Assembly (NCBI RefSeq): GCF_002234675.1
Contig: NC_019876.2
Location: forward strand, 24,515,371 to 24,579,370
Source: Oryzias latipes
Lineage: Eukaryota > Chordata > Actinopteri > Beloniformes > Adrianichthyidae
Length of the DNA stretch: 64,000 nt
Reading direction: 5' to 3'
This document shows, one piece after another, positions 30,402 through 41,769 of this stretch (position 1 is its first letter; every line of letters begins with the position of its first letter). Below the pieces are notes generated by a model. It did not search any database, was not told where the DNA came from, and saw only the letters and a program-made list of their open reading frames with translations. A program made the position numbers and the translations under genes.

Positions 30402-31436
30402 ATGCCCTGTGTAACTAAGGCAAACAGGCGCAACAATCCAAGCCCAAAACTGAGTCAAGTTCTGGAGGAACTCAACACGCTGAAAAAGGCCCATGAAAAC
30501 CTCATCCAGGACAAAAAAGGCCAGGCTCTTTCTACCAAGGTGGAAGCTCTTGAGCATGAAAATGCTCAATTGAAGAAAGAACTAGAAGAACTTGCTGTTC
30601 CAACTGACACCAAAGAGTTGAGACAGAAATTCAACAACTTAAAAGAAGAGAAAGATCAGACGACTGAAGAACAGTTGACCCTGAAACAGGCCAACCTTGA
30701 CATGGTCTGGGAGCTGGAAGAGTGCAAGGCCGTGTTGATCCAACAAATGGACATCAATGACAAAAATGAAGCTTGCATCAAAAAGCTGAAACAGCAGCTT
30801 AAAGATTTCAAAGAGCAGAAGGCTGCAAAGGGAGGCAAAGGACCCAAACCAGACACCAACAAAGCCTTTGAGGACCTTGAAAGAAAATATCAGGAGTCTC
30901 AAGAGGAAAATGAGGAACTAAAGGCAGAAAATCAAGTTCTGGTCAATGAAGTTGAAGATTTGGAGAAAGAAAATGCTGACCTAAACAAGAAACTGGAGGT
31001 CTCTGCTCAGCATGAATCCACAATCACTGAGCTGAAAGAGCAACTGAAGAAACATGAGGAGGAGAAAAAGGCTCTCCTTGAATTGAAGAAACTCAAGGAA
31101 AAAGAAGCAGAAGATGCAAAAAGGGAGTTGGAAGAAATGAAGGCAAACAAAGAGAAGAAAACAGTCTCTGTACAGACTGACTCTGATGCTGAGGAGAAGA
31201 AAACAGTCTCTGTACAGACTGACTCTGATGCTGAGGAGAAGAAAATAGTCTCTGTACAGACTGACTCTGGGAATCAGGAATGCATCACCAAAGAGGGAGA
31301 AACCACACAAGAACAGGTTGAGGTAGAAGAAGAGGAACCAAAGAAAGGAAAGAAGGTTAAGAGGTTTTCCTTCACCAAATTTTGGCGCAGATTGTTTTGC
31401 TCTAAAAAAGTCAAGCAAGCGACTGCACACAGTTAA
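30402..31436 (+). CDS. Unrecognised coiled-coil protein with basic-aromatic tail, copy 1
   Basis: This is an intronless reading frame of 344 residues from the first ATG; a GTG lies three codons upstream but ATG is the eukaryotic start. I do not recognise the family. Residues of about 15-250 are Lys/Glu/Leu-rich heptad sequence, a long coiled coil, with a short break at GGKGPKPD. Next come three tandem 14-residue repeats of the type KKTVSVQTDSDAEE, an acidic stretch (EEEE) and a basic-aromatic tail containing KRFSFTKFWRRLFC. That tail resembles the MARCKS effector domain, which binds acidic membranes and calmodulin. The resemblance is by eye, and a membrane-anchored coiled coil is only an inference. 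No signal peptide or transmembrane segment is visible. The gene has an X-box/CRE-rich upstream region and is duplicated intact in the other arm. Alternatives are a host gene carried with the duplication or a transposon-borne accessory gene. Confidence 0.75.
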   Translation: MPCVTKANRRNNPSPKLSQVLEELNTLKKAHENLIQDKKGQALSTKVEALEHENAQLKKELEELAVPTDTKELRQKFNNLKEEKDQTTEEQLTLKQANLDMVWELEECKAVLIQQMDINDKNEACIKKLKQQLKDFKEQKAAKGGKGPKPDTNKAFEDLERKYQESQEENEELKAENQVLVNEVEDLEKENADLNKKLEVSAQHESTITELKEQLKKHEEEKKALLELKKLKEKEAEDAKRELEEMKANKEKKTVSVQTDSDAEEKKTVSVQTDSDAEEKKIVSVQTDSGNQECITKEGETTQEQVEVEEEEPKKGKKVKRFSFTKFWRRLFCSKKVKQATAHS

Positions 31437-31464
31437 AAAAAAGATCAACCCAGTCTTAAAAAAA

Positions 31465-31750
31465 GGGGCTGCATGGTAAGGTTTGCATGTTCTTTCCATG
31501 CATGCGTGGGTTTTTCTCTGGGTGCTCCAGTTTTCCCCCCACAACCAAAAATAGAAAAGATGTAAATCATGATTGGTCAGGGTTTAGAAGCTAGTGGGAG
31601 TGTGTGCAGTGATTGAGTTCAACTTTTATGTTTTGTTTTTTTTTTAATTGAAAAAACGGGCTGCATGGCTAAATTGGCGTGTTCTTTCCATGCATGCGTG
31701 GGGTTTTCTCTGGGTGCTCTAGTTTCCCCCCACACACACAAAAAAGTGAA
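31465..31750 (+). repeat. Two SINE-tail-like segments downstream of coiled-coil copy 1
   Basis: GGGCTGCATGG followed by a stretch containing TTCTTTCCATGCATGCGTGG occurs twice (about 31467 and 31660). It resembles the body of the fish repeat at 16536-16876 (GTTTGCATCTTCTCC...GTGGGTTTTCTCC). Mirrors lie at about 40380-40660, and partly at 49280-49530. Confidence 0.55.
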
Positions 31751-31759
31751 AATCACGAT

Positions 31760-39340: not shown

Positions 39341-39450
39341 AGAGAGGTGGAAGACCCTGTGAAATGTAACATTAATTATTCTATTTATGAAATTAAGTCT
39401 CATTTTTGGAATGTTTCTATTTATTTTGATGTCTGACATTTTATTTTATA

Positions 39451-39760
39451 AACTTTTAATGCTGGAAAATCTCATTTGGCTAGATTTTTGGATTTTCCCA
39501 TTGTTTTTTAAATATGAAACACTTTGTGTTGAAGGCTTATGTGGTTTTACTATGAAGAGAAAACACAAGACTTTCTCTGAACCCAATAGAGTGTTCAACC
39601 TTTCTGGAACAGAAGAGGTTAAAGCATTTTTCAACTGGAGCTCAATCTTTGGTTTGACATGAAAACATTTCCAGGAACAGCAGCTGCCTCCTCATATCTG
39701 AAACTTAAGGGGAAAAAGTGTCAGGTTGGTACAATCATAATACAAACCAATGCAAGCAAC
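39451..39760. other. Right-arm-only sequence beside the Harbinger relic
   Basis: About 310 bp are present here but absent at 32366-32372 in the left arm, where CTTGCATT joins directly to TATAAAATAAAATG. It could be an insertion on the right or a deletion on the left. No domain or terminal repeat was recognised. Confidence 0.6.
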
Positions 39761-40692
39761 TGAGTTAAAAAGGAATACATGTACATGAAATACATTTAAT
39801 ATTGCTATATTCATTAATCCATAAACAATTCTTTATTAACATAAATTAATCTTTAAAACTTTAGAATCATCTTTTTGGAAGACTATTTACTTTGATGTTT
39901 CATGTCAAAGAATTTTCAAGGACACTGCAGGGAGTTGAACCCCTTCTAGCTGAAGCCAGAGTTCCATCTACCAGTGCCTTTTGCTTTTATGACTGAACAT
40001 GGAAGCAAAGAAAAACCTGGAGTCCAACCAGCATATATACCCTCTCCATTTCTATGGGCTTGGGACCATCACAGAAAGTACACAGCTTTGTGACTCTCTG
40101 AGGCTGGATTATATATTTGTTTTTTATTTTATTTTCTTTACTGTTTTTAATTTTTTTTATTACAAACCAAGAAATAACTATTGTACATTATATACATTTT
40201 CATAAATACATGGAAATAAATCCTAAAACAGTTTTAATTAATGACTGGAAGTAAACATGTACACTTTTGTTAAAAGCTTCAATTTAACCACAAAAAATAA
40301 ATGTTCTTAAAATCTTTTTCAATGTTTTCCTGGATATTACCAGTGTCTTGTGTCATTACATTTAAGAATCTTGATTTTAACTTTTTTTGTGAGTGGGGGG
40401 AAACTAGAGCACCCAGAGAAAACCCCACGCATGCATGGAAAGAACACGCCAATTTAACCATGCAGCCCGTTTTTTCACTTAAAAAACAAAAACAAAAAAA
40501 CAAAAGTTGAACTCAATCACTGCACACACTCCCACTAGCTTCTAAACCCTGACCAATCATGATTTACATCTTTTCTATTTTTGGTTGTGGGGGGAAAACT
40601 GGAGCACCCAGAGAAAAACCCACGCATGCATGGAAAGAACATGCAAACCTTACCATGCAGCCCCTTTTTTTAAGACAAGGTTCATCTTTTTT

Positions 40693-41769
40693 TTAATTGT
40701 GTGCAGTCGCTTGCGTGACTTTTTTAGAGCAAAACAATCTGCGCCAAAATTTGGTGAAAGAAAACCTCTTGACCTTCTTTCCTTTCTTTGGTTCCTCTTC
40801 TTCTACCTCAACCTGTTCTTCTGTGGTTTCTCCCTCTTTGGTGATGCATTCCTGATTCCCAGAGTCAGTCTGTACAGAGACTGTTTTCTTCTCCTCAGCA
40901 TCAGAGTCAATCTGTACAGAGACTGTTTTCTTCTCCTCAGCATCAGAGTCAGTCTGTACAGAGACTGTTTTATTCTCCTCAGCATCAGAGTCAGTCTGCA
41001 CAGAGACTGTTTTCTTCTCTTTGTTTGCCTTCATTTCTTCCAACTCCCTTTTTGCATCTTCTGCTTCTTTTTCTCTGAGTTTGTTCAATTCAAGGAGAGC
41101 CTTTTTCTCCTCCTCATGTTTCTTCAGTTGCTCTTTCAGCTCAGTAATTGTGGATTCATGCTGAGCAGAGACCTCCAGTTTCTTGTTTAGGTCAGCATTT
41201 TCTTTCTCCAAATCTTCAACTTCATTGACCAGAACTTGATTTTCTGCCTTTAGTTCCTCATTTTCCTCCTGAGACTCCTGATATTTTCTTTTAAGGTCCT
41301 CAAAGGCTTTGTTGGTGTCTGGTTTGGGTCCTTTGCCTCCCTTTGCAGCCTTCTGCTCTTTGAAATCTTTAAGCTGCTGTTTCAGCTTTTTGATGCAAGC
41401 TTCATTTTTGTCATTGATGTCCATTTGTTGGATCAACACGGCCTTGCACTCTTCCAGCTCCCAGACCATGTCAAGGTTGGCCTGTTTCAGGGTCAACTGT
41501 TCTTCAGTCGTCTGATCTTTCTCTTCTTTTAAGTTGTTGAATTTCTGTCTCAACTCTTTGGTGTCAGTTGAAACAGCAAGTTCTTCTAGTTCTTTCTTCA
41601 ATTGAGCATTTTCATGCTCAAGAGCTTCCACCTTGGTAGAAAGAGCCTGGCCTTTTTTGTCCTGGATGAGGTTTTCATGGGCCTTTTTCAGCGTGTTGAG
41701 TTCCTCCAGAACTTGACTGAGTTTTGGGCTTGGATTGTTGCGCCTGTTTGCCTTAGTTACACGGGGCAT
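40693..41769 (-). CDS. Unrecognised coiled-coil protein with basic-aromatic tail, copy 2
   Basis: This is the reverse-arm copy of the gene at 30402-31436, 358 residues from its ATG. It has four 14-residue VSVQTDS repeats against three in copy 1, which accounts for the whole length difference. Outside the repeats only about nine residues differ (for example the residue after MP is R here and C in copy 1, and LNKLREKEA replaces LKKLKEKEA). The frame is open throughout, including the basic-aromatic tail with KRFSFTKFWRRLFC. Its upstream region (to 42336) keeps the X-box palindrome and CRE-like sites. That both copies stay open while neighbouring transposon genes are broken suggests selection, recent duplication or gene conversion. 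Function is unknown. Confidence 0.75.
   Translation of the reverse strand: MPRVTKANRRNNPSPKLSQVLEELNTLKKAHENLIQDKKGQALSTKVEALEHENAQLKKELEELAVSTDTKELRQKFNNLKEEKDQTTEEQLTLKQANLDMVWELEECKAVLIQQMDINDKNEACIKKLKQQLKDFKEQKAAKGGKGPKPDTNKAFEDLKRKYQESQEENEELKAENQVLVNEVEDLEKENADLNKKLEVSAQHESTITELKEQLKKHEEEKKALLELNKLREKEAEDAKRELEEMKANKEKKTVSVQTDSDAEENKTVSVQTDSDAEEKKTVSVQIDSDAEEKKTVSVQTDSGNQECITKEGETTEEQVEVEEEEPKKGKKVKRFSFTKFWRRLFCSKKVTQATAHN

What the first reader, a model, noticed from the sequence alone, without database searches (positions are those of the whole stretch)
30402..41769. Multicopy, unrecognised coiled-coil gene with a MARCKS-like basic-aromatic tail
Two intact intronless frames (344 and 358 residues) and one truncated copy share a long coiled coil, VSVQTDS repeats, an acidic patch and a tail with KRFSFTKFWRRLFC. 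The KRFSF core next to basic residues resembles the MARCKS effector domain. The neighbouring transposon genes are dead while both copies stay open. I know of no family with this layout.
Basis: partly seen in the sequence, partly recalled or inferred. Interest (0 to 1): 0.75.

Follow-up and report, generated by a model that had tools for sequence, protein, structure and literature searches.

The report
Oryzias-only coiled-coil genes, LC8-type motifs
Two near-identical open reading frames in a medaka-like fish genome belong to an undescribed small protein family, so far found only in Oryzias fish, whose layout suggests a paired rod held together by the dynein light chain LC8 and ending in a sticky, positively charged tail.

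Summary
The frames are real: A (30402-31436 +, 344 aa), B (40693-41769 -, 358 aa), and a 5'-truncated copy C near 55.3-55.8 kb, outside the stated span. A and B are mirror copies in a large inverted duplication that also holds acyl-CoA oxidase exons. The family is not confined to this locus: three protein searches found five relatives, four in Oryzias latipes and one of 624 aa in O. melastigma. None came from another genus, and library scans gave only weak coil matches. The VSVQTDS repeat is the informative part. Its VQTD fits the published LC8 (DYNLL) anchor, and a SON peptide sharing VSVQTD bound LC8 by calorimetry (PMC6607443), although only 3 of 8 core-matching sites in that paper's tables bound. 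The motif follows the coil directly, as in Swallow, and its 14-residue period leaves 6-residue linkers. Best reading: a coiled-coil dimer clamped by LC8, with paired basic-aromatic tails on a membrane. The MARCKS likeness is partial: KRFSF is KRSSF in O. melastigma, and the tail is not amphipathic as a helix. LC8 binding, membrane binding and expression are untested; evidence for selection is weak.

The parts
30402..31436 (+). Copy A: intact intronless frame, 344 aa, stop included
40693..41769 (-). Copy B: intact intronless frame, 358 aa, stop included
55314..55790 (-). Copy C: 5'-truncated copy from codon 187 of A to its own stop
48914..49534 (-). 3' flank of copy C, cut off from it by the LTR element; matches 31476-32090
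30444..31169 (+). Helical part of A, residues 15-256 (AlphaFold2 helices 15-36, 38-64, 70-84, 89-142, 150-256); heptad-like periodicity in 15-64 and 150-254, none in 89-142
31152..31269 (+). 42-bp coding tandem repeat in A, 2.8 copies
31161..31184 (+). LC8-type motif 1 of A, TVSVQTDS, residues 254-261
   Evidence: motif definition PMC3078936
31203..31226 (+). LC8-type motif 2 of A, TVSVQTDS, residues 268-275
31245..31268 (+). LC8-type motif 3 of A, IVSVQTDS, residues 282-289
40860..41019 (-). 42-bp coding tandem repeat in B, 3.8 copies; 4 units, one reading SVQID
31341..31433 (+). Basic-aromatic C-terminal tail of A, residues 314-344, net charge +12
15813..33802 (.). Left arm of the inverted duplication (interrupted blocks, 91.9-98.6% in the longer block pairs)
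38218..63684 (.). Right arm of the inverted duplication, holding extra insertions (LTR element, copy C)

Best explanation
A and B are members of a small protein-coding family found here only in Oryzias. Shown: the conserved layout, which is an N-terminal coil, a GGKGP hinge, a second long coil, then at once one to four VSVQTDS units, a disordered acidic stretch, and a KKGKKVKR-(F/S)SFTKF...C tail. Inferred: the coil dimerises; an LC8 (DYNLL) dimer grips the two SVQTD strands where the coil ends and stabilises it; the paired, strongly basic aromatic tails, perhaps with a palmitoylated Cys, then bind an acidic membrane with high avidity, and phosphorylation of the Ser in the tail could release them. 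Where units are repeated, each has 8 motif residues and a 6-residue linker, fitting an in-register LC8 ladder. Odds by my judgement: protein-coding family about 0.85; LC8 client about 0.5; tail as membrane anchor about 0.45. The single confidence value is for the combined mechanism.
For: Seven full-length members align end to end. SVQTDS is in 7 of 7 and in fragment C; in the 10-residue core SVQTDSVNQE, O. melastigma matches P0002, P0003 and P0004 at 10 of 10 and A at 9 of 10, against 44/73 to 47/74 in the stretch that follows for P0002-P0004. The published motif is [D/S]-4 K-3 X-2 [T/V/I]-1 Q0 [T/V]1 [D/E]2 (PMC3078936, abstract seen listing, passages): positions -1 to +2 fit, -4 and -3 do not. 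In PMC6607443 (sections 7 and 8 read) SON YSRKSRCVSVQTDPT and MAST1 YGCTRHQSVQTEDG bound by ITC; all 3 VQT peptides of 66 rows bound. Joining LC8 peptides to a leucine zipper raised affinity at least 100-fold (PMC3078936). Linkers of 6 and 9 residues gave homogeneous LC8 complexes (PMC10046861 passages); here the linker is 6. Swallow has a coil followed by an LC8 site, and LC8 promotes its coil (PMC3995210 passages). In O. melastigma the motif again directly follows a helical-looking stretch despite an insertion before it. AlphaFold2: helix 150-256, then pLDDT under 50 from 255 on. KKGKKVKR is identical in 7 of 7.
Against: No binding, localisation or expression data. The core alone is weak: 3 of 8 sites matching [TVI]Q[TV][DE] in the PMC6607443 tables bound (my count), and 509/5000 and 402/5000 shuffles of P0005 and P0004 hold such a core by chance. 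The identical runs in the C-terminal part are no longer than shuffles give (longest run reached in 3267, 3055 and 5363 of 10000). The repeat number is not conserved: one in P0004 and P0005. The tail has no amphipathic helix moment above shuffles, and the RFSF core is not kept in O. melastigma. Periodicity fails in 89-142 (3480/5000 shuffles reach it) and is unconvincing in P0005 181-478 (699/5000). The structure model is weak (mean pLDDT 63.5). KKGKKVKR could equally be a nuclear signal.
Confidence: 0.38

Rival explanations
1. Nuclear coiled-coil protein: KKGKKVKR is a nuclear import signal, the coil mediates assembly on chromatin or lamina, and any LC8 binding serves only dimerisation.
For: KKGKKVKR is the tail block identical in 7 of 7 and looks like a monopartite nuclear signal (pattern recalled, not from a call). 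ASCIZ, a nuclear factor, is a multivalent LC8 client (PMC5963919, search listing only).
Against: A pure nuclear signal does not explain why SFTKF and the Cys after it are kept in all seven.
Confidence: 0.25
2. The window copies are recent, non-functional or little-used duplicates whose frames are open only because the duplication is young, the repeat being a minisatellite without function.
For: A and B differ at 17 of 1032 aligned coding bases, about as much as long distal arm blocks (98.4-98.6% identity). Copy C is truncated. The 42-bp repeat varies in number and has a degenerate unit.
Against: A-B dN/dS is 0.34 (7 synonymous, 10 non-synonymous; one-sided binomial P 0.034, no transition correction). 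Coding and 5' flank diverge far less than the 3' flank (29/399 at 31600-31999; 5/787 at 29600-30399), though gene conversion could do this. Open relatives exist down to O. melastigma, but annotation favours open frames.
Confidence: 0.22
3. Calmodulin- and PKC-regulated MARCKS-like effector: the tail acts as in MARCKS and the coil and repeats are only a spacer.
For: KRFSF next to basic residues in 6 of 7. MARCKS effector domain binds as a random coil through 13 basic residues and inserted phenylalanines (PMC5487340 passages), which fits a tail without amphipathic moment.
Against: One block of about 20 residues only; no N-terminal myristoylation-type start (MPxxT); KRSSF in O. melastigma; no MARCKS hit from the tail.
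Confidence: 0.1
4. Cargo gene of a transposon, spread by the Harbinger-like or L1-like element whose remnants lie beside it.
For: Harbinger-type DDE_Tnp_4 pieces lie beside A and B and L1-like pieces on the other side (endonuclease E 0.0033, below cut-off).
Against: Both neighbours are explained by the inverted duplication. Copy C has no poly(A) at its 3' end, so it does not look like an L1 retrocopy. I found no element ends bounding the gene, but did not search for terminal repeats systematically.
Confidence: 0.05

Closest known systems
Swallow (Drosophila), an LC8 client
   Same: A predicted dimeric coil directly followed by an LC8 recognition sequence; LC8 stabilises the coil (PMC3995210 passages).
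   Different: No sequence relation tested or claimed; Swallow has a putative RNA-binding N-terminus and its described layout shows no basic-aromatic tail. LC8 binding here is only predicted.
Nup159 and ASCIZ, tandem LC8 clients
   Same: Several LC8 motifs in disordered sequence; in Nup159 next to a coil (PMC3995210; PMC10046861).
   Different: Nup159 carries five LC8 dimers N-terminal to its coil; here one to four motifs follow the coil. ASCIZ linkers vary widely; here they are a uniform 6.
MARCKS effector domain
   Same: Basic residues with phenylalanines, KRFSF core (MARCKS sequence recalled), likely disordered (PMC5487340 passages).
   Different: Shorter, at the C-terminus, with Trp and Cys, and KRFSF not kept in O. 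melastigma.
Growth-arrest-specific (GAS) microtubule-binding coil, PF13851
   Same: Weak coil match in 4 of 7 members, best E 0.00017.
   Different: Copy B scores 16.4 bits against a cut-off of 32.3; typical of generic coils.

Membership tests
LC8/DYNLL clients | Anchor [T/V/I]Q[T/V][D/E] in the chain | tested here: met
   VQTD (or the same core) in 7 of 7 full-length members and in C; chance level 8-10% per shuffled protein
LC8/DYNLL clients | Preferred residues at -4 (D/S) and -3 (K) | tested here: not met
   T or I at -4 and V at -3 in A; SON, which binds, has C and V there. These are preferences, not requirements
LC8/DYNLL clients | Motif in a disordered segment | tested here: inconclusive
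   pLDDT under 50 from residue 255, from a weak model with 6 sequences
LC8/DYNLL clients | Measured binding to LC8 | not testable with these tools
   needs ITC or pull-down
MARCKS family | Effector domain conserved across the family | tested here: not met
   KRFSF in 6 of 7, KRSSF in P0005; no MARCKS hit in PDB sequences
MARCKS family | N-terminal myristoylation site | tested here: not met
   N-termini are MPxxT, or MSSVN in P0005: no Gly at position 2 (rule recalled)
Known coil families in Pfam/NCBIfam | Score above the curated cut-off | tested here: not met
   A, B and P0005 below cut-off; P0001-P0004 have no precomputed Pfam domain, best E among all 7 is 0.00012; NCBIfam best E 0.00096 in 2 of 7; for P0001-P0004 the scores against cut-offs were not shown
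L1 processed retrocopy | 3' poly(A) tract | tested here: not met
   copy C ends without one; A and B not testable because their flanks are part of the inverted duplication

The most novel reading that the evidence does not exclude
An Oryzias-born gene family in which a 42-bp coding minisatellite acts as an evolutionary dial for LC8 valency: one to four SVQTDS units with constant 6-residue linkers set how many LC8 dimers zip a coiled-coil dimer that carries paired membrane tails. Copy number then changes valency between paralogues and perhaps between strains.
Probability: 0.22. Interest if true: 0.6.

Novelty: new variant of a known kind. Interest (0 to 1): 0.4.

Why it matters
If true, a young, genus-restricted vertebrate gene would have assembled a coil, an ancient hub-protein motif and a membrane tail, with the valency of the hub set by a slippage-prone repeat. 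That gives a tractable case, in a laboratory fish, of how a new gene plugs into a conserved hub. If only the family part is right, it still corrects five unrelated automatic names (for example 'myosin heavy chain' and 'autophagy-related protein 23') given to one family.

Tried and rejected
Tail as amphipathic helix: rejected; helix moment at or below shuffles in 5 of 5 peptides (lowest P 0.45). Islands of conservation as proof of selection: rejected; shuffles reach the same runs often. Copy C as an L1 retrocopy: no poly(A). Solved-structure relatives: three weak hits (best E 0.039). First heptad test gave shuffles a coarser grid of periods than the real sequence, which favoured the coil; redone on one grid, and only one search is used: 15-64 reached by 100 of 5000 shuffles, 150-254 by 183, 89-142 by 3480, 255-320 by 4887, P0005 181-478 by 699. 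Fold search: not run, as the model is a low-confidence coil. Own-genome search: not completed, so other copies, flanks and introns outside the window were not examined. Full-text searches for the family or layout (listings only) showed no paper describing it; one search returned none at all.

Full report
What is there. The window holds two open frames of 344 and 358 aa on opposite strands, 97% identical as proteins, and a truncated third copy C near 55.3-55.8 kb that begins at codon 187 of A and runs to its own stop. A and B are not independent insertions: block pairs from 15813-16272/63227-63684 inward to about 33802/38218 show that they sit in the two arms of a large, interrupted inverted duplication, with most long blocks 97.8-98.6% identical and some as low as 91.9%. 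The arms also hold acyl-CoA oxidase exons: PF01756 E 3.7e-11 at 24858-25175; at 56540-56971 it scores 21.9 bits against a cut-off of 22.1; two further matches and two empty results are weaker.

Relatives. The first protein search (E up to 1e-3) found 4 Oryzias latipes proteins; the profile search (E up to 1) added one O. melastigma protein of 624 aa; a third search on the C-terminal part of P0002 alone (E up to 10) returned the same five. The first two searches scored only the 7980 and 7984 candidates sharing most words, candidates are limited by length, and the method needs shared 5-residue words, so distant or much longer relatives could be missed; the third scored all of its 524 candidates. 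Their automatic names are unrelated to each other. The window's species is not given; closeness to O. latipes P0001 (92-96% by method) suggests medaka or a near relative, which is inference. A tree of eight rows groups A, B, C and P0001 (98/99 support) apart from P0002-P0004; other forks are unresolved or little supported. P0005 and P0002-P0004 share a longer acidic stretch that A, B and P0001 lack, so the short form looks derived.

Layout. AlphaFold2 gives helices to residue 256 and low confidence from 255 on; the model is poor overall (mean pLDDT 63.5, pTM 0.33). A periodicity test on one grid supports a heptad-like pattern in 15-64 (100 of 5000 shuffles reach it) and 150-254 (183 of 5000), not in 89-142 (3480), and not convincingly in P0005 181-478 (699). 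O. melastigma has a second copy of the middle coil block and an extra stretch before its single VSVQTDS. The C-terminal 31 residues of A have net charge +12, the preceding 59 residues -13.

The repeat as an LC8 motif. The 42-bp unit encodes TVSVQTDS plus DAEEKK. The published anchor is [T/V/I]Q[T/V][D/E] with preferences upstream (PMC3078936: abstract in the listing, passages). The preferred residues at -4 and -3 are absent here. In PMC6607443 (sections 7 and 8 read; other passages), the SON peptide with CVSVQTDPT bound LC8 by ITC, as did MAST1 with SVQTE and ZFPM1 with GVQTP: 3 of 3 VQT peptides among 66 rows. But of 8 sites in those tables with the full core (SPAG5, EPAS1, SCRN2, NFYC, SON, MAST1, a tobacco mosaic virus peptide, EIF2S2; my reading), only 3 bound, so a core match is far from proof. 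P0002 also has a second loose match, EIQVE. The 6-residue linker equals one of the two lengths (6 and 9) that gave homogeneous complexes in ASCIZ (PMC10046861 passages). A coil followed by an LC8 site is the layout of Swallow, whose coil LC8 stabilises (PMC3995210 passages). Leu-zipper dimerisation of LC8 peptides raised affinity at least 100-fold, so a modest motif after a coil could work.

The tail. KKGKKVKR is identical in 7 of 7, and SFTKF and one Cys are also kept. KRFSF is in 6 of 7; O. melastigma has KRSSF. As a helix the tail is no more amphipathic than shuffles. A disordered basic-aromatic patch is how the MARCKS effector domain works (PMC5487340 passages), so 'works like' stays open while membership fails: KRFSF is not kept, and there is no Gly at position 2. 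A nuclear signal is the main rival.

Selection. A against B: 7 synonymous and 10 non-synonymous changes, dS 0.035, dN 0.012, ratio 0.34, one-sided P 0.034 without transition correction. Overall coding divergence (17/1032) is no lower than the distal arms (1.4-1.6%), although it is below the 3' flank (29/399 at 31600-31999) and above the 5' flank (5/787 at 29600-30399); gene conversion may shape this. B against C differs at 3 changes over 158 codons. Shuffles match the runs of identity with O. melastigma. So selection is suggested mainly by the open, alignable family across two species, a sample biased by annotation.

Verdict. A real, undescribed, apparently Oryzias-restricted coiled-coil family; most likely mechanism an LC8-clamped dimer with paired membrane tails, moderately likely and testable.

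Noticed in passing
49535-55268 (LTRs by BLAST at 49532-50161 and 54639-55268): A young LTR retrotransposon sits just 3' of the stop of copy C: LTRs 99.8% identical, CTTAC on both sides (49530-49534, 55269-55273), one unbroken 1514-codon frame. Pieces match SCAN (E 3.7e-24), integrase, then reverse transcriptase; SCAN in Gag and integrase before RT point to a Gmr1-like gypsy element (order recalled; PMC4131045 passages say SCAN was found in over 50% of Gmr elements only).
   Followed up: partly
15813-33802 and 38218-63684: Large interrupted inverted duplication carrying acyl-CoA oxidase exons in both arms; whether both oxidase copies are intact was not checked.
   Followed up: partly
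34001-36000, and 2970-3902: GC-rich (67%) stretch in the spacer of the duplication; 35290-36256 matches 2970-3902 at 88%.
   Followed up: no
30059-30300 and 30139-30190: 5' flank of copy A is 100% identical to that of B over 242 bp and holds short TGACATCA-like repeats resembling CRE sites (recalled).
   Followed up: no
32947-33282 and 38768-39109: Harbinger-type DDE_Tnp_4 fragments in both arms (E 9.4e-10 and 4.6e-9).
   Followed up: partly
6978-7368, 21145-21600, 22681-23158: A roughly 0.4 kb repeat, 90-93% identical, present three times and rich in short internal repeats.
   Followed up: no
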